Positions 1,884 to 59,134 of a stretch of 64,000 bases of DNA are shown here, in pieces. Within the stretch, counting starts at the first letter, position 1. The number at the start of each line of letters is the position of its first letter. Both the position numbers and the translations under genes were made by a program. This DNA is from Hydrogenovibrio sp. JE_KL2 (GTDB taxonomy: Bacteria > Pseudomonadota > Gammaproteobacteria > Thiomicrospirales > Thiomicrospiraceae): the NCBI RefSeq assembly GCF_009296185.1, contig NZ_WBJR01000002.1, positions 186,001 to 250,000 on the forward strand, read 5' to 3'. The notes beneath the pieces were generated by a model. It was given only the letters and a program-made list of their open reading frames with translations, did not search any database and was not told the DNA's origin.

Positions 1884-3089
1884 ATGTCTCAGGATTCGGC
1901 TACGAACACTGTCACCATTGGAACCAAGTTTTCACCTACCGCAACCAAACTTTTATTGTGTGGCTCAGGAGAACTAGGAAAAGAAGTCGCTTTAGAAGCA
2001 CAACGTTTTGGCATAGAAGTGATTGCGCTTGACCGCTATGAAAACGCGCCAGCCATGCAAGTTGCGGATAAAAGCTACACCTTGAGCATGCTTGACGGTG
2101 ATGCATTGCGTGACATTATCCTCAAAGAAAAGCCTGACTTCATCGTACCGGAAATCGAAGCGATTGCGACCGACACCTTGGCTGAACTTGAACAACAAGG
2201 CTTTAATGTCGTCCCGACCGCCAAAGCCACGCAATTGACGATGAACCGTGAAGGCATTCGTCGCTTGGCGGCAGAAACGCTGGGCTTAAAGACCTCGCCT
2301 TACGCGTTTGCAGACAATAAAGAAGACTTTGTTCAGGCGGTGAACAACATCGGTATTCCATGTGTTGTGAAGCCAATCATGAGCTCTTCAGGCAAAGGGC
2401 AAAGCGTCATTAAAACCGCAGCAGACATTGATAAGGCGTGGGATTACGCGCAAGAAGGCGGACGTGCAGGCAAAGGTAAAGTTATTGTCGAAGGCTTTGT
2501 GGATTTCGACTACGAGATTACACTATTAACTGTACGCCATATCGATGGCACCAGCTTCTGCGAGCCTATCGGCCACTTACAGGAAGACGGCGATTACCGT
2601 CAGTCTTGGCAGCCGCATCCAATGACAGCAACAGCGTTGGAAAAAGCACAGCAGATGGCAAAAAGCATTACGGATGCGCTCGGCGGGCGCGGACTGTTCG
2701 GCGTTGAACTCTTTGTCAAAGGCGATGAGGTCATTTTCAGTGAAGTGTCGCCACGACCACATGACACAGGCCTAGTGACATTGATTTCTCAGGACATTTC
2801 CGAGTTTGCACTGCATGTACGCGCAATCCTTGGGCTGCCGATTCCGAATATTGTCCAGCATGGTCCTTCGGCCTCCAGCGTCATTCTGCCTACCGGGCAA
2901 TCGACACAAACAGCGTTCGGCAATCTGTATCAAGCGCTTAACGAACCGGACACACAAATCAAACTGTTCGGTAAGCCTGAAATCGCCGGTAGACGCCGCA
3001 TGGGTGTTGCGCTTGCCAGAGGCAACTCTATTGAAGAAGCCTTAGAAAAAGCCAAGCGTGCTTCTCAAGCCGTCACCGTTACCTTTTAA
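1884..3089 (+). CDS. purT: Formate-dependent GAR transformylase PurT
   Basis: PurT makes formyl-GAR from GAR, formate and ATP in the third step of purine synthesis, independently of folate. The 401-residue product is close to the usual ~392. An N-terminal pre-ATP-grasp part ([20 protein letters not shown], residues 24-43) is followed by an ATP-grasp domain with [13 protein letters not shown] and the metal-binding stretch [20 protein letters not shown]. The reading frame continues to the characteristic end [17 protein letters not shown] lies 6-7 bases before the ATG. The gene stands alone and is followed by an inverted pair of the dispersed repeat, which may end its transcript. Confidence 0.95.
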
Positions 3090-3117
3090 AAACGTTCTTA
3101 AATAAATACTTTGTCCC

Positions 3118-3160
3118 CCCCAACCTGGCAGAAATTTGTCAATAATCTGCCAGGTTGGGG
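3118..3160. repeat. Inverted pair of the dispersed CCCCAACCTGGCAGA repeat
   Basis: CCCCAACCTGGCAGA (3118-3132) and TCTGCCAGGTTGGGG (3146-3160) are perfect 15-base inverted copies separated by 13 bases. They can form a strong hairpin 29 bases after the purT stop. There is no long T-run, so terminator function is possible but not shown. The rest of the 300-base gap (3161-3317) is AT-rich with no gene seen before the sigma-54 promoter. Confidence 0.85.
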
Positions 3161-3317
3161 TCATATTCTTCACATCAACCCCCGTCAATTTTCTGACTAT
3201 CAGCAATAATTGCCAGTTTCTCGTTGGTTTTTTGCACTCACGCGGCAATTTTTTCCACCCACTAAAATCCTTTAAAATCAATGCTTTAATTTAATTGTTG
3301 GTAACTTTTACCTACTT

Positions 3318-3333
3318 TGGCACGGTCAATGCT
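3318..3333 (+). promoter_or_regulatory. Sigma-54 (RpoN) promoter of the fliS-like gene
   Basis: TGGCACGGTCAATGCT matches the RpoN consensus TGGCACGNNNNTTGCW at all but one fixed position, with the invariant GG and GC at correct spacing. It lies 56 bases before the fliS-like start codon. Many polar flagellar genes of gammaproteobacteria are RpoN-dependent, so this fits the gene behind it. Confidence 0.85.
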
Positions 3334-3389
3334 GTTGGCTAAGTAAAGAAAAACTTTAATTATTTTTTCGACTAGAAAGGAAAACAGCC

Positions 3390-3824
3390 ATGACTACTAA
3401 TTTAACGATGACATCAGAAGCGAAAGCACCACTGATTAAAGACTACAATCGTAACCCACAAACTGAAAAACACTTGGCTGAAAACCCAAGAAAAACTGTT
3501 TTGTTACTATTACAAGGTGTTGTTGATAAAGGAAATTTGGCAAAAGTTTGCCACCAATCCAATGCTTTGGTTGAAAAAGGATTCCACCTAGGTCGTATGA
3601 CAACGATTCTTGACGCACTTCGTGACCGTTTGAGTTTGACCGAACACACTCCGATTGCGTACGATCTGGAAGAACTTTATCACTATGCTGATAAAGCGAT
3701 ACAAGAAGCTGTGTTTGAAAAAGATACTTTCTATCTAGACAGCGCTATCGAAATTCTTACCGAGCTAAGAGATGCTTGGTTGGAAATGATGCATCAAACA
3801 GGTGAGCTTGGCGATCACGCTTAA
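3390..3824 (+). CDS. fliS: FliS-like flagellin export chaperone
   Basis: A 144-residue, largely helical protein. Residues 30-135 follow the FliS pattern: an alkyl-rich first helix (KTVLLLLQGVVDKGNLAKV), a central I..LRDRL segment, then L..LY.Y.......A and a last helix with LTELRDAWLEM. FliS binds the flagellin C-terminus in the cytoplasm and prevents early polymerisation. The N-terminal 25 residues are extra and polar. GAAAGG lies about 10 bases before the ATG. No flagellin (fliC) or fliD gene is adjacent, so this is an orphan copy. The RpoN promoter upstream strongly supports a flagellar role. The family call rests on pattern recognition. Confidence 0.72.
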   Translation: MTTNLTMTSEAKAPLIKDYNRNPQTEKHLAENPRKTVLLLLQGVVDKGNLAKVCHQSNALVEKGFHLGRMTTILDALRDRLSLTEHTPIAYDLEELYHYADKAIQEAVFEKDTFYLDSAIEILTELRDAWLEMMHQTGELGDHA

Positions 3825-3898
3825 TTCTCGCTTAGCTTGCCTGATGCAACTAAGTTTGGCTTTCTTTCCTTTCAAACTCGAAGGCTTTACTTACTCCC

Positions 3899-3930
3899 AA
3901 GACCAGTTACTTTAGCTGGTCTTTTTTTTA
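3899..3930 (+). terminator. Rho-independent terminator after fliS
   Basis: AAGACCAG and CTGGTCTT pair around a 9-base loop, followed by a run of T. It falls between fliS and the cytochrome gene. This argues that the longer open frame starting at 3837 is not translated and that the cytochrome starts at 4002. Confidence 0.85.
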
Positions 3931-4001
3931 TCTGTTTTCTTTGTATAATCCTCTATAGACTAAATCGTTCTGCACTTTCAACCCAACAAAGAGTCAACCC
4001 A

Positions 4002-4562
4002 ATGAGCCTAAAAAACACTCCTAATAGCTTCGGCCTAGTTTCTCGCGCAAACCACTGGATTTCCGCTTTTGCATTTATCCTGGCGCTTATTACTGCTTTC
4101 GCTGCCGAAGAATTCATGGCAAAAGGTGAAGCAAGAACCGCCGTGTTCCATCTGCATTTCTCTTTGGGAATCAGCTTATTTCTGCTGATGATTCTTCGAG
4201 TCATCTGGTTGAAGATGTCACCTAACCCGGAAGACATCGGTGAAAATCGTATGGAAGTCGTGTTGAGCCACATCGTCAAAGGCTTCTTGTACCTTTCCTT
4301 GATTGTCATGCCGATTTCAGGCTATATGATGGTCAGCGCCGGTGGACACGACATCCCTTTCTTTAATCTGTTTACATTACCGAACTTGATTGGCGAAAAT
4401 CCTGACATTAAAGCCATTGCCAAACCGCTACATGTTTACAGCGGATTCCTCATCACATTCATTTTGATGATGCATATTGCCGGTGCTTTGAAACATCATT
4501 TCGTCTACAAAGATGACGTACTTAACCGTATGTTAGGTCGCTCTTCCTCTAAGCCTGAATAA
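4002..4562 (+). CDS. Cytochrome b561 family protein
   Basis: A 186-residue inner-membrane protein with four predicted helices and the b561/CybB layout: ANHWISAFAF near the N-terminus, HLHFSLGISLFLLMILRV, then HIVKGFLYLSLIVMPISGYMM, and KPLHVYSGFLITFILMMHIAGALKHH at the end. The spaced histidines fit two b-type haems. Such proteins pass electrons between quinol or other reductants and periplasmic acceptors; the partner is unknown. I chose ATG 4002 (MSLKNTPNSFG) over the upstream in-frame start because a terminator hairpin and a TATAAT box (3944-3949) lie between them. A weak AAAGAG precedes the start. Confidence 0.85.
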   Translation: MSLKNTPNSFGLVSRANHWISAFAFILALITAFAAEEFMAKGEARTAVFHLHFSLGISLFLLMILRVIWLKMSPNPEDIGENRMEVVLSHIVKGFLYLSLIVMPISGYMMVSAGGHDIPFFNLFTLPNLIGENPDIKAIAKPLHVYSGFLITFILMMHIAGALKHHFVYKDDVLNRMLGRSSSKPE

Positions 4563-4664
4563 GGCCGTTTAAAACCTAGAAAATTTTTAAATAATAAAAA
4601 TAACTATTTGTTTTTCTAAAGTTTTAACAAAGTCTGTCGATACCATGAATATCGCAAAAAATGA

Positions 4665-4691
4665 TTAGCACTCTCTTGACTTGAGTGCTAA
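4665..4691. promoter_or_regulatory. CIRCE operator (HrcA site) in the rpoH promoter
   Basis: TTAGCACTC, nine bases, then GAGTGCTAA: a perfect match to the CIRCE consensus bound by the heat-shock repressor HrcA. It overlaps the -35 box of the rpoH promoter, so bound HrcA would be expected to block transcription. Confidence 0.93.
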
Positions 4692-4703
4692 TTTCTGTAT
4701 ATT
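4676..4703 (+). promoter_or_regulatory. rpoH promoter overlapping CIRCE
   Basis: TTGACT (4676-4681) and TATATT (4698-4703) are separated by 16 bases, a good sigma-70-type promoter. The -35 box lies inside the CIRCE spacer. Transcription would start around 4710, about 34 bases before the chosen ATG. Confidence 0.75.
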
Positions 4704-4743
4704 AGAGTTAATGAAAAAGATGACTCAACAGGAGCAGGATTGT

Positions 4744-5595
4744 ATGACAAATCAAATGATTCCGTTTAGCGCGAGCCTTACTCCAGGACAAAACATCGAA
4801 CACTACCTGGCAACCGTTCAAACTATGCCTGTCTTAAGTGCAGAAGAAGAACACGCGCTTGCTGAAAAATTGTATTACCAACAAGACCTAGAAGCAGCTA
4901 GACAACTTATCTTGTCAAGCCTACGCTATGTTGTGCCCGTTGCCCGCTCTTATAAAGGTTATGGATTGCCTTTGGGAGACTTGGTGCAAGAAGGAAACAT
5001 CGGCTTGATGAAAGCGGTAAAACGCTTTAACCCAAACGAAAATGTCCGCCTAATGACGTTTGCCGTGCATTGGATTCGTGCTGAAATCAACGAATATGTC
5101 ATTAAAAACTGGCGTATCGTTAAAACAGCAACCACCAAAGCGCAACGTAAATTGTTCTTCAAACTAAGAAGCACAAAAAAATCGTTGGAATGGTTTGGTA
5201 ACAAAGATGCCGATGCGGTTGCAAAAGAACTGGGGGTTACACGACGCGACGTGTTGGAAATGGAAACCCGACTTTACGGTCAGGATTTACCGGTAGATAT
5301 GAGTTCCGATGATTCGGAAGATTCAGGTAAAACCTACCCTATCTTGGTCAGCCAAGAGTTGGACCCGGAAACACACTTGGTCAACGAATCCCAAAATGAT
5401 TATGAAATGGGCATGATGACATCTGCGCTTGCGAACTTGGATGAACGTAGCCAAGACATTATCCGCAAACGCTGGTTAACTGAAGATAAAGTCGGTTTGA
5501 AAGAATTGTCTGAAATTTACGGTGTTTCTATGGAACGTATCCGTCAGATTGAACAGCAAGCTTTGTTAAAAATGCGTGCGAACATGCAAGCTTAA
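4744..5595 (+). CDS. rpoH: Heat-shock sigma factor RpoH (sigma-32)
   Basis: Directs RNA polymerase to heat-shock promoters. The 283-residue product matches the usual 284. Region 2 contains GDLVQEGNIGLMKAVKRF and FAVHWIRAEI, followed by the RpoH box QRKLFFKLR and the region 4 helix-turn-helix LKELSEIYGVSMERIRQIE. I chose ATG 4744 because AGGAG sits 9 bases upstream and the protein then starts at the usual place. An in-frame start at 4681 would lie inside the promoter. A CIRCE operator overlaps the promoter, so the regulator of one heat-shock regulon appears to be controlled by the repressor of another. Confidence 0.96.
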   Translation: MTNQMIPFSASLTPGQNIEHYLATVQTMPVLSAEEEHALAEKLYYQQDLEAARQLILSSLRYVVPVARSYKGYGLPLGDLVQEGNIGLMKAVKRFNPNENVRLMTFAVHWIRAEINEYVIKNWRIVKTATTKAQRKLFFKLRSTKKSLEWFGNKDADAVAKELGVTRRDVLEMETRLYGQDLPVDMSSDDSEDSGKTYPILVSQELDPETHLVNESQNDYEMGMMTSALANLDERSQDIIRKRWLTEDKVGLKELSEIYGVSMERIRQIEQQALLKMRANMQA

Positions 5596-5614
5596 CGACC
5601 GCTTTCAACACCAT

Positions 5615-5645
5615 AAAAAAGCCCCGACATCGGGGCTTTTTTTAT
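5615..5645. terminator. Bidirectional terminator after rpoH
   Basis: GCCCCG and CGGGGC pair around ACAT, flanked by A6 on one side and T7 on the other. It can serve rpoH on the plus strand and the convergent small membrane protein gene on the minus strand. Confidence 0.93.
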
Positions 5646-5671
5646 GAGTGATTTTAAGTATTAGTGGTGTG

Positions 5672-5995
5672 TCAGAAAAATCGCATCGCAACGATCAAAA
5701 CAATACAAGCATCCGCAATCAAAGTTAATAGGAAACCGAGCTTTTGTACCATGCCGCGCATTACACTCGTACTCCCCTTCAACACCAATAACGACAGCAA
5801 ATTGGCAAAGATCACGAGAGGTACCCCCCAAGTAATCGCCACATTGAACTCTGTCGCACCAGGCTTAACTTCATTCAACCCGAACACCACCAACAATGCC
5901 GGCAGAAATAGTCCAAACGCAATTAAACCGAACATCGCCGCCAAGATGGACAGCATATTGATTAACCATTGAGGTTTGTCGGTTTTATTCGTCAT
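5672..5995 (-). CDS. Small integral membrane protein, unknown function
   Basis: A 107-residue protein with three to four hydrophobic segments (around residues 12-42, 54-75 and 85-105 of the ATG form) and no motif I recognise. It follows the mutarotase gene by 20 bases on the same strand and is probably the last gene of the aroK-aroB operon. A TTG in frame at 6010 is an alternative start; ATG 5995 is preferred because a G-rich stretch (GGGGGC) precedes it. Confidence 0.65.
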   Translation of the reverse strand: MTNKTDKPQWLINMLSILAAMFGLIAFGLFLPALLVVFGLNEVKPGATEFNVAITWGVPLVIFANLLSLLVLKGSTSVMRGMVQKLGFLLTLIADACIVLIVAMRFF

Positions 5996-14452: not shown

Positions 14453-16612
14453 ATGCCAACACCAACCAGTATCGATGGTTTATTAGAAAAGGCGTCGCTT
14501 TACCTAAGCAAAAAGCAGGTTAAGCAAATTCAGGCAGCATTTGAATTTGGAGCTGAAGCCCATCAAGGGCAAACTCGAAAATCCGGTGGGGATTACATAT
14601 GGCACCCAATAGCGGTTGCTGAAATTCTCGCCGAAATCCAACTTGATTGCGAAAGCCTCATCGCAGCGATTCTTCACGATGTTGTAGAAGACACCCCCTT
14701 CACCAAAGAAGATATTGAACAAAAATTCGGACATAATGTTGCTGAAATTGTCGATGGTGTCACCAAGCTCGGAAAACTCGAATTCGACAACCCGCAAGAA
14801 GCTCAGGCTGAAAACTTCAGAAAAATGATTCTGGCAATGTCGCGAGATATACGCGTCATCCTCATCAAACTTGCCGACCGCCTGCACAATATGCGAACCC
14901 TTGGCGTCATGCGCCCGGAAAAACAACGCCGCATTGCCCGAGAAACCTTAGAAATTTTTGCACCAATTGCTGCCAGGTTGGGGATTAACGCCTTCCGTAT
15001 CGAGTTGGAAGACCTCGGCTTTAAAGCCATGTACCCAAATCGTTACTCCGTGCTGGAACGCGCCGTAAAAAAAGCGCGAGGCAACCGAAATGAAGTCGTA
15101 AACCAAATCAGTGAAGCCATCACCAACCGCTTGGTCGACGATAAGATTCCTGCACAGGTTGTCGGACGGGAAAAACATTTGTACAGCTTGTACAAAAAGA
15201 TGAAATATAAAAATCTTAGCTTTGATGAGATTTTGGATATTTTTGCCTTCCGTGTCGTGGTCAATAGTGTCGATGAATGTTATCGCGTACTGGGCAGTGT
15301 TCACTCGCTTTACAAACCTTTCCCGGGTCGTTTCAAAGACTATATCGCCATCCCAAAATCCAACGGATACCAATCACTACACACGGTACTGTTCGGACCT
15401 TTTGGCGCCTATATCGAAGTGCAAATACGTACCAAAGAAATGCATGAAGTCTCCGAACACGGTATTGCAGCCCATTGGATTTACAAAAATGATCAAACCG
15501 AAGAAGGACAGGCCACTCAACACCGCCTGAACGCCGTCGAAATCAGAGCGCAGGAATGGGTGAAAAACCTATTGGAAATCCAGCAAAGCGCGGGGAACTC
15601 TCTCGACTTCCTAGAAAACGTGAAAATCGACCTATTCCCAAGCGTCATCTATGTCTTCACACCAAAAGGAGAGATTGTCACGCTACCTGCTGGTTCCACT
15701 GCCGTTGACTTTGCCTATGCGGTGCATACCAGCGTTGGACATTCAACAGTTGGCTGTCGTGTCGATAAAAAACTGGTACCCTTGAGAACCCATTTGGAAA
15801 GCGGACAAACCGTTGAAATCTTGAGAAGCCAAGAACAACAGCCTAACCCTGCATGGCTACATTTTGTCACCACGGCCAAAGCGCGCTCTCAGATTCGTCA
15901 CTTCCTCAAAACACAGCAAACAGAGTCTGCGGCGAGTCTTGGTAAACGCTTACTGACAAAAGCCATTCGCAGCTTCAATATGTCTTACCAAGGACTAACG
16001 GAAGAAGTCCAACAAAAAGTGGTCGAAGAGCTTAAGCTGAACAGCTGGGATCATTTGCTGGAAGAAATCGGTTTAGGCCAACGATTGGCCAACCTGGTCG
16101 CCAAGCAAATCCATGACCTGCTACTTGGTACGGAAGACTCAATATTCCATTATCAAGGGAAAATCGACCCTACAATGCCATTGGTTATTTCCGGCACAGA
16201 AGGCATGGTCGTCAATTACGCAAACTGTTGTCATCCGATTCCTGGAGACGATATTCTTGGGTTTATCAGTGCTGAAAAAGGACTGGTGATTCATCGTCAA
16301 GAGTGTCCTAACGTCAAGAACTTCAAAAACCATCCTGAAAAATGGCTCGACGTTCACTGGGAAGAAAACATCACCCAAACATTCAATGTCGAACTACAAA
16401 TTGAAGTACTGAACGGGCGCGGCGCCCTGGCGACTGTTGCCAGCAAAATCGCTGAGATGAAAACCGATATCGACCGTGTGCGCTCCGAAGATAAAGACGA
16501 GACTTACAGCTTGATGAATATCGTCATCCGTGTTCGCACCCGTAAGCATCTGGCCGACATCATGCGTAAATTAAAACGCCTGCCAATCGTTGAAAAAATT
16601 CATCGCATTTAA
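14453..16612 (+). CDS. spoT: Bifunctional (p)ppGpp synthase/hydrolase SpoT
   Basis: A 719-residue RelA/SpoT homologue. The HD hydrolase domain is intact (HDVVEDTPFT near residue 80; LADRLHNMRTLG). The synthetase domain contains YIAIPKSNGYQSLH, and TGS (VYVFTPKGEIVTLPAGSTAVDFAYAVHT) and C-terminal ACT domains follow, all as in SpoT. Both activities are plausible. The stretch CTGCCAGGTTGGGG at 14970-14983, inside the codons for PIAARLGI, is identical to the core of the dispersed repeat. The ribosome binding site is weak, which suggests coupling to rpoZ. Confidence 0.96.
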   Translation: MPTPTSIDGLLEKASLYLSKKQVKQIQAAFEFGAEAHQGQTRKSGGDYIWHPIAVAEILAEIQLDCESLIAAILHDVVEDTPFTKEDIEQKFGHNVAEIVDGVTKLGKLEFDNPQEAQAENFRKMILAMSRDIRVILIKLADRLHNMRTLGVMRPEKQRRIARETLEIFAPIAARLGINAFRIELEDLGFKAMYPNRYSVLERAVKKARGNRNEVVNQISEAITNRLVDDKIPAQVVGREKHLYSLYKKMKYKNLSFDEILDIFAFRVVVNSVDECYRVLGSVHSLYKPFPGRFKDYIAIPKSNGYQSLHTVLFGPFGAYIEVQIRTKEMHEVSEHGIAAHWIYKNDQTEEGQATQHRLNAVEIRAQEWVKNLLEIQQSAGNSLDFLENVKIDLFPSVIYVFTPKGEIVTLPAGSTAVDFAYAVHTSVGHSTVGCRVDKKLVPLRTHLESGQTVEILRSQEQQPNPAWLHFVTTAKARSQIRHFLKTQQTESAASLGKRLLTKAIRSFNMSYQGLTEEVQQKVVEELKLNSWDHLLEEIGLGQRLANLVAKQIHDLLLGTEDSIFHYQGKIDPTMPLVISGTEGMVVNYANCCHPIPGDDILGFISAEKGLVIHRQECPNVKNFKNHPEKWLDVHWEENITQTFNVELQIEVLNGRGALATVASKIAEMKTDIDRVRSEDKDETYSLMNIVIRVRTRKHLADIMRKLKRLPIVEKIHRI
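14970..14983 (-). repeat. Core copy of the dispersed repeat inside spoT
   Basis: CTGCCAGGTTGGGG, 14 bases identical to the repeat core, here encoding part of the conserved APIAARLGI segment. The AT-rich flank is not conserved, so this copy could be coincidental. Confidence 0.55.
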
Positions 16613-17168: not shown

Positions 17169-17186
17169 CCCAACCTGGCAGATTTT
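17169..17186 (+). repeat. Dispersed repeat copy upstream of ridA
   Basis: CCCAACCTGGCAGATTTT, an exact consensus copy, 39 bases after the SpoIIAA-like gene and 66 bases before ridA. Confidence 0.85.
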
Positions 17187-18569: not shown

Positions 18570-18586
18570 AATCTACCAGGTTGGGG
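18568..18586 (-). repeat. Dispersed repeat copy at the TraB/GumN stop codon
   Basis: AAAATCTACCAGGTTGGGG, one mismatch to consensus (A for G). Its first bases overlap the TAA of the preceding gene. Confidence 0.75.
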
Positions 18587-28102: not shown

Positions 28103-28121
28103 CCCCAACCTGGCAGATTTT
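28103..28121 (+). repeat. Dispersed repeat copy at the glmU stop codon
   Basis: CCCCAACCTGGCAGATTTT, exact. Read on the minus strand it is AAAATCTGCCAGGTTGGGG, with its first bases inside the glmU TAA. Confidence 0.88.
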
Positions 28122-38807: not shown

Positions 38808-39437
38808 CTAAATTTTCTGCACTTGAATTAAGGTTCTTTCCGCTTGCAAATGAGGTACTTGCAACTCGAAAACTTGCGTTATTCTAGCAAAATTAGGTAA
38901 TTGCGCTAGCTCATCTTGAGTTTTCTGTGATTTCATTGCCCACCAGTAACCCTCCTCCTTCAGGAGATGTCCGGTCCAATGCAACATATCGTCTAAAGAA
39001 GCAAACGCTCTGGAGACAACGCCGTCATATAAAGTTTCCGGCTGATAATCCTCTACTCGCATATGAAACACCTGCGTATTTTGAAGACCTAATTCTGCTT
39101 TCGCCTGAATCAGAAAACGGGTTTTTTTACTGTTGCTGTCCAGCAAATCAATTTGTCTTTCCGGAAACAATATCGCCAGAGGAATACCAGGTAAACCACC
39201 CCCAGTACCAACATCAATCAATCTTTCACTATCAATAAATGGTGCGACTGCCAAGCTATCCAATAAATGTTTAACGAACATTTCCTGTTCATTACGAATC
39301 GCCGTCAAGTTATAAACCTTGTTCCACTTGCGTAATAACGCCAAATAGTCGACCAATTTCTGCCAGGTTGGGGGGGATGGCTCCAAGCCCCATGCTTCAT
39401 AAGCTTCCGCCAGTTGATCAAAATAGAATTGAGACAT
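38808..39437 (-). CDS. rsmG: 16S rRNA (guanine-N7) methyltransferase RsmG
   Basis: Methylates G527 of 16S rRNA using SAM. The 209-residue protein has LLRKWNKVYNLTAIRN, LDSLAVAPFI, and the SAM-binding DVGTGGGLPGIPLAI, followed by LLDSNSKKTRFL. The N-terminal, poorly conserved segment PPTWQKLV is encoded by a copy of the dispersed repeat (39355-39373). It lies 15 bases after mnmG. Confidence 0.96.
   Translation of the reverse strand: MSQFYFDQLAEAYEAWGLEPSPPTWQKLVDYLALLRKWNKVYNLTAIRNEQEMFVKHLLDSLAVAPFIDSERLIDVGTGGGLPGIPLAILFPERQIDLLDSNSKKTRFLIQAKAELGLQNTQVFHMRVEDYQPETLYDGVVSRAFASLDDMLHWTGHLLKEEGYWWAMKSQKTQDELAQLPNFARITQVFELQVPHLQAERTLIQVQKI
39355..39373 (-). repeat. Dispersed repeat copy inside rsmG
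   Basis: AATTTCTGCCAGGTTGGGG on the plus strand, one to two differences from consensus in the AT-rich flank. It encodes PPTWQKLV near the rsmG N-terminus. Confidence 0.8.
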
Positions 39438-49314: not shown

Positions 49315-49333
49315 CCCCAACCTGGCAGATTTT
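49315..49333 (+). repeat. Dispersed repeat copy between the kinase and queF
   Basis: CCCCAACCTGGCAGATTTT, exact. On the minus strand it starts 2 bases after the queF stop codon; on the plus strand it lies 12 bases after the kinase stop. Confidence 0.9.
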
Positions 49334-52930: not shown

Positions 52931-53047
52931 TCACAAAAACATCATAAAAATGTCAGTTTTCACTCTTGGAAAGAATTTAGCAATAATTGACCCAACCTGG
53001 CAGATTTTCAGTGCCTTTTGATTGGCTAATGACATGACTTGCTTCAT
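52931..53047 (-). CDS. 38-residue ORF carrying the repeat-encoded N-terminal module
   Basis: A short frame starting MKQVMSLANQKALKICQVGS. Its first 52 bases match the 5' end of the gene at 56042 at about 79%, with the same 14-codon distance from ATG to the ICQVG codons. After the module it runs into a hydrophobic tail and stops. AGAAG lies about 8 bases upstream. It may be a truncated remnant of a gene with this 5' module. The same DNA is also open in another frame (ending ENLPGWVNYC), so its coding status is doubtful. Confidence 0.35.
   Translation of the reverse strand: MKQVMSLANQKALKICQVGSIIAKFFPRVKTDIFMMFL
52991..53008 (+). repeat. Dispersed repeat copy in the 52.9-53.2 kb gap
   Basis: CCCAACCTGGCAGATTTT, exact. 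It lies within the short ORF at 52931-53047. Apart from that ORF and the one at 53096-53182, the 299-base gap shows no gene. Confidence 0.88.
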
Positions 53048-53095
53048 AAATATTCTTCTCAATCTCTTTAAACACCAAGTGTAATGTCAGTGAGA

Positions 53096-53182
53096 TTAGA
53101 TGTCATGCCCTTGAACCTGGCTAAGTTTTTCCGAGGCTTTCGCTAAGAAGTCTTCATTCTTCCCTAAATTAAACGCACCCAT
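53096..53182 (-). CDS. Possible 28-residue peptide
   Basis: A short frame MGAFNLGKNEDFLAKASEK... ending QGHDI, starting 3 bases after the stop of the 305-residue gene. AGGTT precedes it. The composition looks protein-like and hydrophilic, but there is no family and it could be the remnant of a longer gene. Confidence 0.25.
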   Translation of the reverse strand: MGAFNLGKNEDFLAKASEKLSQVQGHDI

Positions 53183-53185
53183 ATT

Positions 53186-54103
53186 TTACAACCTATCCTG
53201 ACCTATACTTTTCAATTGCTTAGTGATGTTACATTCAGGCTTTCCATCAAAGTAGAAACTGCCGCTCTTAAAAAAAAGAGGCCCATTATTGCAGTTTGCC
53301 TCTTTGAATGTCTGATCATCCATTAAATCATAATAGTTATATTGTCCAGTTCTCGTATTTGAATAAATAACGCTATTGCCAAAGAGATAATCATATATTC
53401 CGTCCTGATTGAGGTCTATCCTAGGAGCAAAATCCATTGCTCGGCTTTGCTGCTCCTTACTATAACCATGTTTTGCTAATAACTTACAAATAGTCTCGGT
53501 ATGGGAGGAATCTTGACATTTCTGATGCCAACGAGTAAAAAATTCTACAAAAAAGCCCCTATTATCTGGGTTAATCATGCAAATATTGATATTCTGGTTG
53601 GTCAGTCTTGCAGAGTGCGTTGGAAAAAAATTGGTCCACTGTTTCTGTGTTGCGATAATCCGCAAACGCAGTGCCATACCGTTATAATCCATAAGAGAGT
53701 TTCTGACAAACTGATAGAACTCTGGGCTGCTATATTGCTTTTTGGTGATTTTAAACCGAATATCACGACCAAAAGCCAATGCATAAACAGTTCGTCTTTT
53801 ACCCTTAATGTCCGCCTGATATTTAACTACACCAACACCGTTAAAAGTGATCTGGTCTTTTTGAAAGTCAAATGATGGCGCTTTGATCTTTTTAGTTTTA
53901 TCAATCCATTTCACGTTCATGAATTCATCACACATGGGGTATTGAGCTTTTAGTGCTGTCCGTTCGGCACCAGTTTTAAACCCAATATTCGTTTCTTCAG
54001 CATAAGCGGTGCTGATAAACCCTATAAGTAAGCAGAACCCTATCCACCCAACCTGGCAGATTTCGTGTAATTTTTTCTGAACTGACTGTCTTGTTGCTTG
54101 CAT
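53186..54103 (-). CDS. Exported protein with EF-hand-like calcium loop, unknown function
   Basis: A 305-residue protein with a signal peptide (WIGFCLLIGFISTAYA, cleavage near residue 35). Its N-terminal codons 15-20 (ICQVGW) come from the dispersed repeat. The mature part has eight to nine cysteines, likely disulfide-bonded, and an acidic loop DLNQDGIYDYL near residue 237 resembling a calcium-binding EF-hand or dockerin-type loop. AGGA lies 6 bases before the ATG. I recognise no overall family. AT-rich codon use and clustering with two other exported unknown proteins suggest an accessory region. Confidence 0.72.
   Translation of the reverse strand: MQATRQSVQKKLHEICQVGWIGFCLLIGFISTAYAEETNIGFKTGAERTALKAQYPMCDEFMNVKWIDKTKKIKAPSFDFQKDQITFNGVGVVKYQADIKGKRRTVYALAFGRDIRFKITKKQYSSPEFYQFVRNSLMDYNGMALRLRIIATQKQWTNFFPTHSARLTNQNINICMINPDNRGFFVEFFTRWHQKCQDSSHTETICKLLAKHGYSKEQQSRAMDFAPRIDLNQDGIYDYLFGNSVIYSNTRTGQYNYYDLMDDQTFKEANCNNGPLFFKSGSFYFDGKPECNITKQLKSIGQDRL
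54047..54063 (+). repeat. Dispersed repeat copy in the signal region of the 54103 gene
   Basis: CCCAACCTGGCAGATTT, exact over 17 bases. It encodes ICQVGW just before the hydrophobic part of the signal peptide. Confidence 0.88.
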
Positions 54104-54133
54104 ATAAATCCTGTCTTTTGCCTTTGAGCCGAC

Positions 54134-55069
54134 TTAACTTATTCCTAGATAGGAAATCATGTGCTTTTTAAGAATTGGTTTGGCTTGTTCTAGCGGCATT
54201 CCGGAATGGATTTCATTTGAATAAAGCGCCTTCAGATAGGCAACATCTAAAGGTTGAATATCTCCATATTTATAATTCGGAACAACAAGGATACTAGGCA
54301 AGTCTCTAACATTAATAGTATCTGTGAACATATTGAAAAACATCTGATTCATATTGCCCAATACGCTATTAACACCTTTCTTTTCAATTAAGGGATGTGT
54401 CGAGTCTAACAACCCTATAGCCATATTGACGCTTCTATTCTCTCGTCTTATAAATAGAGATGTTTTGTATATACTGTTCCTTTGTTTTTCTCTTTCTATT
54501 GCCTGCTGAAGCTTTTCGCCTTTTTTTCCATGGTAAAGGCGGTTTACATACGCGGAAGATGTACTCATTTGGTATACAGGCATACCCGCCACTGCCATAT
54601 CAAAATACACATTTCTTTCATTAGAGCCTTGGGGAATGTAACGAATCTTTAATCCGGTTAGTTTTCTGTATCGTGCCAAGTTGCTTTTAAAGTGCTCGAA
54701 CAGCTTTTCTTTAAGTTCCGGGGAAACTTTTGCAACACTCAAGCCCGCTTTAAGATATTCAGTTTTACCATGAAGCTCTTTATAACGGTCTAAACTCCTA
54801 TTCAACGCAGTTTCCAGATACCCTTTTTCAAAGCGAACAATGCCTTTTGTCTGACTTTTTAGCGCTTGATCTAAATAACTAGCGACCATTTCCTCGGTAA
54901 TAGTTTCTGATTGTGCATCTTCAGCAAGAGCTTGATTCATAGGAAGCACCAAAATAAATAATATTGAAAAAACAAGTTTAAAAACTTCTAGCTGTCTAAA
55001 ACACTTCTCCACCCCAACCTTGCAGATTTTTAATGTATTTTGCTTACCTAATAACATTGCTGGTTTCAT
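54134..55069 (-). CDS. Exported DUF2927-like protein 1
   Basis: A 311-residue protein whose signal peptide (VFSILFILVLPMNQALA) lies unusually late, at about residues 32-48. The first 19 residues (MKPAMLLGKQNTLKICKVG) are shared with the next gene and are partly repeat-encoded. The mature part resembles DUF2927 proteins: YRKLTGLKIRYIPQ in the middle and PLDVAYLKALYSNEIHSGMPLEQA near the end. The function of this family is unknown. The family call is from memory of its pattern. It lies 30 bases upstream of the EF-hand-like gene on the same strand. Confidence 0.68.
   Translation of the reverse strand: MKPAMLLGKQNTLKICKVGVEKCFRQLEVFKLVFSILFILVLPMNQALAEDAQSETITEEMVASYLDQALKSQTKGIVRFEKGYLETALNRSLDRYKELHGKTEYLKAGLSVAKVSPELKEKLFEHFKSNLARYRKLTGLKIRYIPQGSNERNVYFDMAVAGMPVYQMSTSSAYVNRLYHGKKGEKLQQAIEREKQRNSIYKTSLFIRRENRSVNMAIGLLDSTHPLIEKKGVNSVLGNMNQMFFNMFTDTINVRDLPSILVVPNYKYGDIQPLDVAYLKALYSNEIHSGMPLEQAKPILKKHMISYLGIS
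55012..55030 (+). repeat. Dispersed repeat copy (one mismatch) in the 55069 gene
   Basis: CCCCAACCTTGCAGATTTT, one mismatch in the core (T for G). It encodes KICKVG. It is part of a longer, about 70-base similarity with 55985-56058. Confidence 0.82.
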
Positions 55070-55142
55070 AGCATCCTACTTAAACTCTAAATATTGTTAA
55101 TCAATCGAGTCTGACCCTGTTGATTCTTCCCAGGCATCTGAA

Positions 55143-56042
55143 TTAACTCCCTTTTAACAAATCAACATTACTGTCTAAAATTGCTGGAGCGTAATGGTGC
55201 TCTTGAATGTAATCGACAGTTAAATCAATTAATTTTTGTTTAAAGATTTTCATTTGTTCTGTAGATAGATTCTCTCCAAAAAAAGACTCTAACTTCGGCG
55301 AATAAAAACTCACTAAAAGCGCTTTATCAATTGGAAAATAGTGTCCCATATCACACTCATTTCGATAGTTAAAAACGGTTCTATTTAAAGGACTTTTTTC
55401 TGCATTATTATCTGGAACAAGCCCCTCTAATAAAGCATTTTGCAGATAGCAATAATCTTTAGGGTTTACAAAATTTGAGATCAAGAAGTAATGAGATAAA
55501 AAACCATTTTCACTTCTAATTATTTGCTTTGATTCAGTGGTTTGACTATACAAATAATCAATAAACTCCTTATCCGACATTTTTGCTAGTTCAGGGTTTC
55601 CTTCCTTATACCATTTGGCTTTGTAGGCAATTTCAAAGCGCCAATCATTGGCAAATAGTAATGCTGTATTAGTCTTCTTCCAGTTATCTACTTTTTGTAT
55701 ATCTAGCCCTGTTAAGGCTCTTAATTTGCCATAACTCTTAAAAATTAGAGCATTTTGCTCTGTGCTGAACTTATAAGGTGTAGCAAAATATGTCTGATAC
55801 CTAACTTGTTTGTTCCATCGTAGAATTCCTGGAAACAAGTTTTTTTTCTGGTCATCATTAAGTAACGAATTGACTTGAAGCGTTACCAAATATTTAAGAG
55901 GGCCTGATGCTTTAAGGTTATTATCACTTGGTTTATTTTGAGAACACCCACTTAACGTCAGCGTCAACGCCAATGAAAGTAACCACCCAACCTGGCAGAT
56001 TTTTAATGTCTTTTGTTTGCCTGATAACATTGCTGGTTTCAT
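55143..56042 (-). CDS. DUF2927-like lipoprotein 2
   Basis: A 299-residue protein. The first 20 residues (MKPAMLSGKQKTLKICQVGW) contain the repeat-encoded module, then a lipoprotein signal (LLSLALTLTLSGC, cysteine at about residue 33). DUF2927-like features follow: a TGLDIQKV segment after LRAL, DYCYLQNALLEGLVPDN with a cysteine, and PIDKALLVSFYSPKLESFFG. It is related in layout to the gene at 54134 and probably forms one transcription unit with it. Translation starts 73 bases before the gap holding no other gene. Function is unknown. Confidence 0.68.
   Translation of the reverse strand: MKPAMLSGKQKTLKICQVGWLLSLALTLTLSGCSQNKPSDNNLKASGPLKYLVTLQVNSLLNDDQKKNLFPGILRWNKQVRYQTYFATPYKFSTEQNALIFKSYGKLRALTGLDIQKVDNWKKTNTALLFANDWRFEIAYKAKWYKEGNPELAKMSDKEFIDYLYSQTTESKQIIRSENGFLSHYFLISNFVNPKDYCYLQNALLEGLVPDNNAEKSPLNRTVFNYRNECDMGHYFPIDKALLVSFYSPKLESFFGENLSTEQMKIFKQKLIDLTVDYIQEHHYAPAILDSNVDLLKGS
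55986..56004 (+). repeat. Dispersed repeat copy in the 56042 gene
   Basis: CCCAACCTGGCAGATTTTT, exact. It encodes KICQVGW directly before the lipoprotein signal. Confidence 0.9.
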
Positions 56043-56124
56043 AGAATCCTACTTAACTCTGATATTGCTGAGGGTTATTGCAGGTTATGGTACCAAAGAT
56101 TGTAGGTATTTCTGTAGGTTGATA

Positions 56125-56715
56125 TTAACGATAGGTGCAGCGATTTTGTTCCAATCGCTGGCAGAATGTTGCTTGATGCGCCAAAGGGAGCTGTAATTGA
56201 AGTGTGACTTGATTGGTGTAATCGACAGAAACCAATTTGCCCTCGGCTTCTTCCAAAAAGTGGCGCACCTGCTTTTCTAAAGCGAAATCGCAGACCACTT
56301 CTATCGACACCATTTCCACTTGCTGAATGATGGGTAGAATTTCCATCACCGCTTGCGCCGCCTGCCCGTAAGCTCGGGTCAGCCCGCCGGCACCGAGCTT
56401 GATGCCACCGAAATAGCGCACGACAATCACCATGACATCGCCCACGCCTTTGTGTTGCAACACGTTCAGGATGGGTTTTCCTGCGGTACCGGAAGGTTCG
56501 CCATCATCGCCCATCCCGGCATTGGAAGCACAGGCGGGATTGCCGATTAAATAAGCCCAGCAGTGGTGTCGTGCATCAGGATAGCGTGTTTTGATTTCGT
56601 CTAGCCATTGCATGCCTTGTTCACGGGTTTCGATGGTTTGCGCATAGGCGATGAAACGACTTTTTTTGATTTCGATTTCCGCGTGCGTCAGCTCGGCGGG
56701 CACCGGGTAAGACAT
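56125..56715 (-). CDS. yigZ: YigZ/IMPACT family protein
   Basis: A 196-residue protein of the IMPACT/UPF0029 family. Signature stretch: EIKKSRFIAYAQTI, RHHCWAYLIG, then DDGEPSGTAGKPILNVL and VVIVVRYFGGIKLGAGGLTRAYGQAA, all intact, with a C-terminal ferredoxin-like domain. The molecular role is not settled; the eukaryotic relative regulates the GCN2 kinase. Its ATG overlaps the stop of the upstream CDF gene (TAATG), so the two are coupled. Confidence 0.93.
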   Translation of the reverse strand: MSYPVPAELTHAEIEIKKSRFIAYAQTIETREQGMQWLDEIKTRYPDARHHCWAYLIGNPACASNAGMGDDGEPSGTAGKPILNVLQHKGVGDVMVIVVRYFGGIKLGAGGLTRAYGQAAQAVMEILPIIQQVEMVSIEVVCDFALEKQVRHFLEEAEGKLVSVDYTNQVTLQLQLPLAHQATFCQRLEQNRCTYR

Positions 56716-57796: not shown

Positions 57797-59134
57797 TTAT
57801 TTCAATAAACCCAAAGCGCCATAAAACTCAAACCAGCTTTGCCAAATCTTCGCTTTGGTCAAAGGCACATCGCGTTGCGCTTTGTGCAGGCTGCGTTGTG
57901 CGTTGAGCAAGTCGAGAATATTCCGCGTGCCGGTACGCAAACCGTTTTCCGTGGCTTTTACCGCTTCTTGGTTAGATGACAGTGCTGCTTTCAAAGCTGC
58001 AAGGCGTTCAACACCGGCTTGATAACTGAGCAAACTGTTTCTGACGGTTGCCTCCAGTTGCAACACCAATTGACGTTTTTGCGCTTGTGCCGCAGACACT
58101 TGAGCGCGAGATTTAGAAACCGCCGCATCAGTTCGTCCACCGAGGTACAAGGGATACTTCAGCTCCAAGCCGCCTTTGACCCCTTGCATATCATCGTAGT
58201 AATTGCCATCACTGTCGTTATACACATAGGCGCCAAAGGCATCTAGCTGAACGCCGTTCTTGTTTTTCTCATAATCCACTTGTCGGTTAGCCGCCATAAT
58301 CTGTTGCTCCAAGGCTTTCACCTGTGGATTCTGCAACAACCAATCCGGTTGAACCTTGGCATCCACTTTCTGGCTGGACGATGCTCTGTTGAGCAACGCA
58401 TCATTCGGCAAATCCTCCGGCATTTTCATTCGATGCAAATCGACTGATTCTCCCACTTGCGCAGATAAATCCGACTCGGTAATCGCCAGCGCCTGTTTCG
58501 CCGCCAGCAAATCGGCACGGTTGTTATCCAGCCTTGCGCGAATCTCAGCGATGTCGTTCAAATCCTGATAACCGACCTGAAAGCGCTTGCGCACTTGCGT
58601 CATGATGGAAGCAATGGATGTTTGCTCTTTGACCAAAAAGTCCACTTGCGCCTGCTGAGACCAATAGCGGTAATAGAGCTCTGACAACTGCAACATCAGT
58701 TTTTGTCTTTGGGCTTCAAGCTGCCATTGCGCCGCATCATGTTGAAAAGTCGCCACTTGGGTCAAATCGGTTTTATCCGGTTGATACAAAGGATAGCTTG
58801 CCTTCAACTGATTGGCGGTACGCCCGAAGTCCTTTTTCTTCATCCAGGCGTAACTCAACTCCGACTGCAGCTGAACCTGAAGTTTTTCATAAGACGCCGC
58901 CTGTTTCTGTTGGCTCAAAGCGCCCTGTGCCTGAGCCGAAAAAACTGCCAGGTTGGGGTTATTGCTTAACGCGGTTTGATAAAGCTGCATCAACTGCGCA
59001 TCTTTTTGCAGCACTTTTTCTGGGGCTGTCACCGCCATTTGCGGCTCGGCGAAGGCCGAGGTTGCAACCAACATCAAAGCGATTACCACCGTATATACGG
59101 TTTGATTTACGGCTTGTTTCAATAAAGGTTTCAT
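57797..59134 (-). CDS. TolC-family outer-membrane efflux protein (CusC-like)
   Basis: A 445-residue protein with a signal peptide (VVIALMLVATSAFA) and the two-fold helical barrel pattern of the TolC family: LMQLYQTALSNNPNLAVFSAQ near the N-terminus, LYYRYWSQQAQVDFLVKEQ, VRKRFQVGYQDLNDIAEIRARL, a strand-rich GGLELKYPLYLGG, and a second GLRTGTRNILDLLNAQRSL. It has no lipidation cysteine, unlike E. coli CusC. The start overlaps the cusA stop (TAATG). It is the outer channel for the CusBA pump. A variant of the dispersed repeat encodes part of NNPNLAVFSA. Confidence 0.9.
   Translation of the reverse strand: MKPLLKQAVNQTVYTVVIALMLVATSAFAEPQMAVTAPEKVLQKDAQLMQLYQTALSNNPNLAVFSAQAQGALSQQKQAASYEKLQVQLQSELSYAWMKKKDFGRTANQLKASYPLYQPDKTDLTQVATFQHDAAQWQLEAQRQKLMLQLSELYYRYWSQQAQVDFLVKEQTSIASIMTQVRKRFQVGYQDLNDIAEIRARLDNNRADLLAAKQALAITESDLSAQVGESVDLHRMKMPEDLPNDALLNRASSSQKVDAKVQPDWLLQNPQVKALEQQIMAANRQVDYEKNKNGVQLDAFGAYVYNDSDGNYYDDMQGVKGGLELKYPLYLGGRTDAAVSKSRAQVSAAQAQKRQLVLQLEATVRNSLLSYQAGVERLAALKAALSSNQEAVKATENGLRTGTRNILDLLNAQRSLHKAQRDVPLTKAKIWQSWFEFYGALGLLK
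58941..58958 (-). repeat. Dispersed repeat copy inside the tolC-like gene
   Basis: AAAACTGCCAGGTTGGGG: the 14-base core is exact, with one T missing from the flank. It encodes part of the conserved NNPNLA segment. Confidence 0.75.

What the first reader, a model, noticed from the sequence alone, without database searches (positions are those of the whole stretch)
52931..56042. The repeat is used as an N-terminal coding module in four consecutive ORFs
Four minus-strand ORFs start, after exactly 14 codons, with ICQVG or ICKVG encoded by the repeat (starts at 53047, 54103, 55069, 56042). Three of these then run into a signal peptide or lipoprotein signal. Outside the repeat the 5' ends are also alike: about 79% over 52 bases between 53047 and 56042, and about 70 bases of near identity, including upstream DNA, between 55069 and 56042. 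A shared 5' cassette has apparently been placed in front of different mature proteins, or one gene duplicated and diverged.
Basis: seen in the sequence. Interest (0 to 1): 0.8.

Follow-up and report, generated by a model that had tools for sequence, protein, structure and literature searches.

The report
Candidate DNA-uptake tag inside gene starts
The repeat at the start of these genes is one of about 250 copies of a short DNA tag scattered over a Hydrogenovibrio genome; related species carry their own spelling of it, which is what one expects of a signal for taking up DNA of one's own kind, so far reported only from two other bacterial families.

Summary
In detail: four minus-strand ORFs carry the repeat in frame after exactly 14 codons; two share a ~71-nt 5' unit (92%), a third a weaker copy, and similarity stops at the repeat.

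But the repeat is not primarily a coding module. Its core CTGCCAGGTTGGG occurs 252 times in the 2.44-Mb genome (123/129 per strand; reversed control 0), mostly intergenic (38 of 49 sampled sites, though 83% of the DNA is called coding). Species of the genus, Hydrogenovibrio, use different versions: T-form here and in H. marinus (252, 223), C-form in a third (211), CGCCAGGGGTGG in a fourth, palindromic CCAGGCCTGG (367-677) in seven. Of 12 orthologous sites still recognisable in the C-form species, 11 carry C; all 9 C-sites located here carry T. The versions nest along a tree. This is the pattern of DNA-uptake-sequence dialects, which a 2025 paper knows only from Neisseriaceae and Pasteurellaceae.

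In these ORFs the tag sits in signal-peptide starts, as it also does in fliO. The 5' unit has five copies at two loci, three of them only short leader ORFs; the 53047 'ORF' is a chimera joined at the repeat. Uptake function is inferred, untested.

The parts
55986..56002 (-). repeat (uptake-like tag) AAAATCTGCCAGGTTGGG in frame as KICQVG, start of lipoprotein signal of the 56042 ORF
55013..55029 (-). repeat with one mismatch (CTGCAAGGTTGGG), read as ICKVG in the 55069 ORF
54047..54063 (-). repeat, read as ICQVG in the 54103 ORF
52991..53007 (-). repeat at the junction: DNA downstream (lower coordinates) is homologous to G004 (H. marinus), DNA upstream is not (0.78 against 0.33 identity)
55143..56042 (-). 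299-aa lipoprotein, DUF2927 (E 5.8e-6); ortholog in G003 at another locus
54134..55069 (-). 311-aa secreted protein, weak DUF2927 hit (E 3e-4, below the curated cut-off)
53186..54103 (-). 305-aa secreted protein, no Pfam family; 5' end only marginally like the other three
52934..53047 (-). 38-codon ORF MKQVMSLANQKALKICQVGS...: copy of the 5' unit joined at the repeat to native intergenic DNA; not a gene
55986..56060 (-). copy 1 of the 5' unit (ribosome-binding site, ATG, 14 codons, repeat), ~75 nt
55013..55088 (-). copy 2 of the 5' unit (91% to copy 1)
52991..53048 (-). copy 3 of the 5' unit (81% over 59 nt to copy 1)
53068..53106 (-). remnant of the 3' end of an outer-membrane efflux (OEP/TolC-like) gene, like L104 7040-7080
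   Evidence: alignment read by eye
55100..55117 (-). GGGTCAGACTCGATTGAT, the sequence that flanks the IS200/RAYT-like transposase gene at G000:C1:560 kb
53013..56126 (.). variable island: absent from the syntenic place in G004 and G003 (TonB receptor plus 4Fe-4S membrane protein there); GC 36.4% against 44.5% for the window
3119..3159 (.). inverted pair of the tag between genes, folds as a strong hairpin (-30.4 kcal/mol, z -6.3)
14970..14982 (+). tag inside a 719-aa ORF; orthologous place degenerate in G003
17169..17181 (-). intergenic tag; C-form at the orthologous place in G003
18573..18585 (+). tag with one mismatch at a gene 3' end; C-form in G003
28104..28116 (-). intergenic tag; C-form in G003
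39360..39372 (+). tag, antisense in the 5' part of a 209-aa ORF; C-form in G003
49316..49328 (-). tag between convergent genes; C-form (with CTACC) in G003
58945..58957 (+). tag, antisense in an OEP/TolC-like ORF; C-form in G003 with the same flank

Best explanation
The repeat is a self-DNA recognition tag of Hydrogenovibrio, most likely a DNA-uptake sequence: a short motif around CCAGG with a 5' A-tract, bound by a surface (probably type IV pilin) receptor during natural transformation, so that DNA carrying it is taken up and recombined more often and the motif accumulates by point mutation plus biased recombination; when the receptor's preference shifts, sites all over the genome follow, giving dialects. 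SHOWN: abundance, both orientations, in-place conversion of sites between dialects, nesting of dialects on a tree, hairpin-forming pairs, comEC in all 11 genomes. INFERRED: uptake, and the receptor. The four ORFs hold the tag in frame for two reasons. (1) The start of a signal peptide tolerates the pentapeptide ICQVG; fliO, an ordinary gene elsewhere in the genome, has it at the same codon. (2) A ~75-nt 5' unit (ribosome-binding site, ATG, 14 codons, ending in the tag) has been copied to five places at two loci in front of unlike genes, with similarity ending at the tag; at 53003 the tag is the junction between foreign and native DNA. I infer that incoming or duplicated DNA recombined at the tag plus its adjoining 5' unit.
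For: Abundance: 252 exact copies, 123+/129-, reversed control 0. Dialects: a k-mer scan of samples from all 11 genus genomes finds a CCAGG-containing motif in each (G009 confirmed on 100 kb; G004 seen from only 20 kb and on 160 kb, where unrelated repeats rank above it); whole-genome counts T-form 252/223/4 in G000/G004/G003, C-form 1/2/211, palindrome 367-677 in the seven others and 0-1 in G000, G003, G004, G009. In-place conversion: of 78 G000 sites examined, 14 had an ortholog in the G003 samples; 11 carry the motif with C (7 exact, 3 with one more mismatch, 1 with a tail gap), 1 (in comEC) keeps T, 2 are degenerate; conversely 9 of 28 G003 sites had an ortholog in G000 and all 9 carry T (first seen). 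Tree nests G009, G003, (G000, G004) with supports 0.98-1.0. Location: 11 of 49 sites in called genes against 82.7% coding. Tag pairs within 60 bp: 4 among 85 C1 sites, 0.48 expected; hairpin z -6.3. comEC 11/11; pilin cluster in 4 of 4 genomes searched. ORFs: unit pairs: upstream identity 0.87-0.89 against 0.346 sd 0.051; downstream 0.32-0.45 against 0.351 sd 0.059; 97 sites, 4656 pairs; FliO, E 7.1e-21.
Against: No uptake or transformation data exist here; comEC also rings in non-specialised controls such as E. coli, so it proves little. The FimT/GspH family, one known DNA-binding minor pilin, was found in 0 of 11 genomes, and no receptor was identified. Density is about 1 per 10 kb, lower than the ~1900-5900 per genome of Neisseriaceae DUS (PMC3630211, section read). 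Outside the genus the pattern is patchy: 14 of 22 other-family-member samples of 7-20 kb showed no clear motif. The majority dialect is a palindrome, unlike DUS or USS. The T-form persists in G003 in 4 places. The recombination-at-the-tag step rests on few junctions, and the 54103 5' end is only marginally similar.
Confidence: 0.74

Rival explanations
1. A highly iterated motif of the HIP1 kind: a genome-wide site kept by methylation, nucleoid or recombination functions and not by uptake.
For: Seven of 11 genus genomes have a palindromic version; the core CCAGG is a CCWGG site (recalled as a Dcm-type methylation site).
Against: CCWGG as such is not enriched: 336 against 530 expected in 338 kb of G000, and also below expectation in the other four samples tested. 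Four genomes use asymmetric versions. Motifs change in concert between close species, whereas HIP1 is described as the same sequence in all described cases (PMC4390886, passages seen).
Confidence: 0.14
2. A Chi/KOPS-like polar motif for recombination or chromosome segregation.
For: Chromosome-wide, short, frequent.
Against: No strand polarity: 101+/122- in complete G004; of 100 listed + sites 54 lie in the first and 46 in the second half (origin near base 1 assumed). Strong exclusion from genes and hairpin pairs are not expected.
Confidence: 0.03
3. A mobile small repeat (REP/MITE) moved by the RAYT/IS200-like transposase found at C1:560 kb.
For: A Y1_Tnp transposase gene (E 3.4e-16) lies between two copies of the 5' unit.
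Against: Sites differ between species by point substitutions at aligned positions, not by insertions; the transposase has its own flanking repeat GGGTCAGACTCGATTGAT; conservation beyond 19 bp is absent.
Confidence: 0.03
4. One reading: the repeat is a dedicated N-terminal coding module (secretion leader) shared by a gene family.
For: In-frame use after 14 codons in four ORFs and in fliO; five copies of the 5' unit.
Against: Most copies are intergenic; three of the five 5' units are short leader ORFs not fused to the next gene; the peptide changes (V to A) with the species dialect.
Confidence: 0.06

Closest known systems
Neisseriaceae DNA uptake sequence (DUS) and its dialects (PMC3630211: abstract, passages and section on dialects read)
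   Same: Hundreds of near-identical copies on both strands, a short conserved inner core, species dialects differing by single bases and following phylogeny, inverted pairs at gene ends.
   Different: Unrelated motif; lower density; palindromic majority dialect; Gammaproteobacteria; receptor (ComP there) not identified; no uptake test.
Pasteurellaceae uptake signal sequence (USS) (PMC12616744 abstract and introduction; PMC2346458 first of three parts read)
   Same: AT-rich flank next to a GC-rich core, bias away from coding DNA and to gene ends, terminator-like pairs.
   Different: Core AAGTGCGGT is unrelated; no evidence for the two downstream AT-tracts; Sxy/CRP-S regulon not looked for.
HIP1 of cyanobacteria (PMC4390886: passages seen)
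   Same: Highly iterated, palindromic in seven genomes.
   Different: Concerted dialect changes and asymmetric versions; enclosing CCWGG sites not enriched.

Membership tests
DNA-uptake sequences as a kind (DUS/USS) | Hundreds or thousands of copies per genome on both strands | tested here: met
   252 copies, 123+/129-, control 0
DNA-uptake sequences as a kind (DUS/USS) | Dialects conserved within a species and following phylogeny | tested here: met
   (one genome per species held, so within-species conservation itself not tested)
DNA-uptake sequences as a kind (DUS/USS) | Invariant inner core across dialects | tested here: inconclusive
   CCAGG in all Hydrogenovibrio versions; CAGGCC in G022, G023, G046, G047 and ACCGGCCGGT in G026, from 20 kb each
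DNA-uptake sequences as a kind (DUS/USS) | Inverted pairs as terminator hairpins | tested here: met
   4 pairs within 60 bp against 0.48 expected on C1; fold of window 3105-3175
DNA-uptake sequences as a kind (DUS/USS) | Competence machinery | tested here: inconclusive
   comEC 11/11 but also in E. coli control; prepilin cluster 4/4; GspH/FimT 0/11; ComEA, DprA, PilQ not searched
DNA-uptake sequences as a kind (DUS/USS) | Motif enhances DNA uptake/transformation | not testable with these tools
   needs an assay
Neisseriaceae DUS | Sequence ATGCCGTCTGAA or a described dialect | tested here: not met
   motif is AAAATCTGCCAGGTTGGGG
Pasteurellaceae USS | Core AAGTGCGGT or ACAAGCGGT | tested here: not met
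HIP1-like | Perfect palindrome containing enriched methylation sites | tested here: not met
   asymmetric in G000, G003, G004, G009; CCWGG under-represented
REP/RAYT repeats | Copies inserted at empty sites, extragenic, paired with a RAYT | tested here: not met
   in-place substitutions, some coding copies

The most novel reading that the evidence does not exclude
Hydrogenovibrio and relatives (Thiomicrorhabdus included) are a third bacterial group with uptake-sequence-driven self-DNA recognition, arisen independently: the widespread palindrome CCAGGCCTGG is the older form, and a chain of asymmetric dialects (CGCCAGGGGTGG, CTGCCAGGCTGGG, CTGCCAGGTTGGG) evolved within one genus; the tag also acts as a recombination joint that puts a ready-made translation start in front of new secreted genes.
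Probability: 0.6. Interest if true: 0.9.

Novelty: new variant of a known kind. Interest (0 to 1): 0.8.

Why it matters
[quoted passage not shown] A third, in free-living chemolithoautotrophs, with dialects changing inside one genus between species close enough to align site by site, would let one watch how receptor and genome-wide motif change together, and find the receptor by comparing pilins between a T-form and a C-form species.

Tried and rejected
Rejected: repeat as mobile element, as Chi/KOPS-like polar site, and as generic CCWGG site (see rivals). RNA element: no Rfam match in 48-60 kb, and single-copy 5' units do not fold better than shuffles (z 0.39, 0.66). Plasmid origin of the island: no match in the plasmid collection. 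Receptor search: GspH/FimT none in 11; the N_methyl cluster shows a 184-aa prepilin that is 79% identical to G004 but 51% to G003, suggestive only. Structure models of two island proteins were unusable (mean pLDDT 34.8 and 36.4), so no fold search was made. Naming through genome contigs gave only Thiomicrorhabdus arctica as a family member; names of G004 and G008 come from contig lengths equal to published ones. One search (order) returned the same 62 genomes. Literature: no paper holds both 'uptake signal sequence' and Thiomicrospira, 'DNA uptake sequence' and Hydrogenovibrio or 'DNA uptake sequence' and sulfur-oxidizing; the 13-mer is in one unrelated paper; CCAGGCCTGG is in 49 papers, 40 listed, none by title on these bacteria, 9 not seen; searches showed none on the subject among the rows listed (25 of 211, 12 of 17). 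Most subscription papers are not held.

Limits of counts: the gene caller was home-made, needed trained codon usage and missed the island genes (two of the 38 'intergenic' exact sites, 54047 and 55986, lie in island ORFs; counting these, 13 of 49 are coding); some of the 15 stretches were chosen because sites or the unit lay in them. The position matrix mixes orientations for 12 of 41 rows, so I rely on its printed rows and. Eight short stretches (G012, G015, G016, G033, G036, G037, G038, G041; 5 kb or less) were fetched but left out of the k-mer scan. G007 rests on 46 kb and G004 on 20 kb. An earlier count said the palindrome is abundant in most genomes of 6 of 7 genera; the count is 26 of 62 genomes with 234 or more copies, in 4 of 7 genera, and that is the one I stand by. 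In one search two translations were one base out of frame and were redone (still wrong; 94, 95 right).
Full report
What is there. The four ORFs and their 14 codons before the repeat are as described. The repeat core CTGCCAGGTTGGG is highly significant in the window (15 matches with up to two mismatches, 0.99 expected). In the whole 2.44-Mb genome there are 252 exact copies, 123 on one strand and 129 on the other, none of the reversed control. Flanking rows read AAAATCTGCCAGGTTGGGG, with nothing shared further out.

Which organism. G004, the nearest species held (YigZ protein 97% identical), has one contig of 2,491,293 bp, exactly the chromosome of Hydrogenovibrio marinus MH-110 (PMC6797543, whole text); G008 contig 1 is 263,867 bp, exactly the largest contig of Hydrogenovibrio sp. 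SC-1 (PMC5794960, whole text). The genus is therefore Hydrogenovibrio.

Dialects. The T-form core is found in 3 of 62 family genomes: this one 252, H. marinus 223, G003 4. Scanning 20-100 kb of each of the 11 genus members for over-represented words finds a CCAGG-containing motif in every one: CTGCCAGGCTGGG in G003, CGCCAGGGGTGG in G009 (17 of the 10-mer CCAGGGGTGG in 100 kb), palindromic CCAGGCCTGG in G001, G002, G005, G006, G007, G008 and G010. Whole-genome counts: C-form 211 in G003 against 1 and 2 in G000 and H. marinus; palindrome 367-677 in the seven, 0-1 in the other four, with at most 2 of its control. In the family, 26 of 62 genomes, in 4 of 7 genera, have 234-856 palindromes; one more has 106; the rest 44 or fewer. 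Thiomicrorhabdus arctica, a named member, has 3 palindromes and 6 ACCAGGCCTG in 20 kb, while none of the 25 further named loci inspected (L165-L189) has more than one palindrome. Short samples suggest more versions in genus g5 (G022, G023, G026, G046, G047), and none in 14 of the 22 other samples.

Sites change in place. I aligned tag sites with their orthologs in the DNA at hand. Of 78 G000 sites, 14 had an ortholog in G003: 11 carry the motif with C in place of T, one (in comEC) keeps T, two are degenerate. Of 28 G003 sites, 9 had an ortholog in G000, and all 9 carry T. The flanks are 71-83% identical in those alignments. H. marinus keeps 12 of 14 exactly and two with one substitution. So sites are made and unmade by point mutation, and one base changed almost everywhere. 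A tree of two proteins nests the versions: (G009,(G003,(G000,H. marinus))) within palindrome species, supports 0.98-1.0.

Location. By a home-made gene caller on 338 kb, 82.7% of the DNA is coding but 11 of 49 sites are (13 if the island ORFs are counted); 8 of the 11 are antisense; many of the rest lie just beyond gene ends. Pairs within 60 bp exceed expectation (4 against 0.48), and the pair at 3119-3159 forms a hairpin. There is no strand polarity. These are the habits described for DUS and USS (PMC12616744 introduction; PMC2346458, first of three parts), and the latter reports USS bias to gene termini in Pasteurellaceae.

Back to the four ORFs. (a) Frame: the 56042 protein has one ortholog in the genus, in G003 at another locus, and it reads its C-form tag in the same frame (ICQVG becomes TCQAG). 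fliO (FliO, E 7.1e-21) begins MQSMNRLIIVFVRKICQVGVFAFAWFSANVYA, with the tag after the same 14 codons but no similarity to the 5' unit. So a tag in a signal-peptide start is tolerated, and the shared number 14 is partly copying and partly coincidence. (b) The 5' unit: 75 nt with five copies in this genome and none in the ten other genus genomes: 56042, 55069, 53047, C1:559082 and C1:560815 (only its 40 best candidates per genome were scored). Among 97 tag sites (4656 pairs), 47-nt upstream identities of the best unit pairs are 0.87-0.89 against a mean of 0.346 (sd 0.051), while their downstream identities are at background. The C1 copies follow an OEP gene and a transposase gene and encode 31- and 30-codon leaders ending at, or just before, the start of the next gene. 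(c) The island 53013-56126 replaces, relative to H. marinus and G003, a TonB-receptor and a 4Fe-4S membrane gene; its GC is 36.4%, third lowest of 609 windows. Its lower edge lies at the 53003 tag: 0.33 identity to H. marinus upstream, 0.78 downstream. The 53047 ORF is therefore a join of a 5' unit to native intergenic DNA.

Mechanism. I take the tag to be an uptake sequence: a receptor at the cell surface, probably a minor pilin, prefers it; tagged DNA recombines in; sites spread and are kept true to the receptor; a receptor change drags the sites along. Shown are the genomic traces; receptor and uptake are inferred. The copying of the 5' unit I attribute to recombination of incoming or duplicated DNA anchored on the unit and ending at the tag; this is inferred from one clear junction and from the sharp edges.

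Against. No assay; comEC is uninformative on its own; no FimT/GspH; ComEA, DprA and PilQ were not searched; density is lower than in Neisseriaceae; the majority dialect is a palindrome, so a HIP-like role cannot be excluded; the genus-level dialect in G004 is outranked by unrelated repeats in one sample.

Noticed in passing
L259 4696 (G003), L258 3917 (G000), L260 4845 (H. marinus): One of only four T-form tags in G003 lies in comEC, at the place where G000 and H. marinus have theirs: a relic or a transfer.
   Followed up: partly
L254 6563-10000 (G000:C8:194.6-198 kb): Cluster of four prepilin-like genes; the 184-aa one is 79% identical to H. marinus but 51% to G003, below its neighbours: receptor candidate.
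   Followed up: partly
L104 7964-8680; window 55100-55117: IS200/RAYT-like transposase gene flanked by GGGTCAGACTCGATTGAT; one such sequence also stands between two of the island genes.
   Followed up: partly
L066, L076-L079 (G001); L120-L123, L127-L129 (H. marinus): Unrelated words repeated 18-34 times in the samples (CCGACACCACGG in G001; CCACAGCGGA in H. marinus), probably long repetitive genes.
   Followed up: no
G000, G002, G003, G006, G009 samples: CCWGG is below a Markov expectation in all five genomes tested (e.g. 336 against 530), as if avoided outside the tag.
   Followed up: no
L047 (G006:C2, 103,628-bp contig): Only 2 palindromes in 20 kb against 24 in 80 kb of the main contig; possibly a plasmid poor in tags, sample too small.
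   Followed up: no
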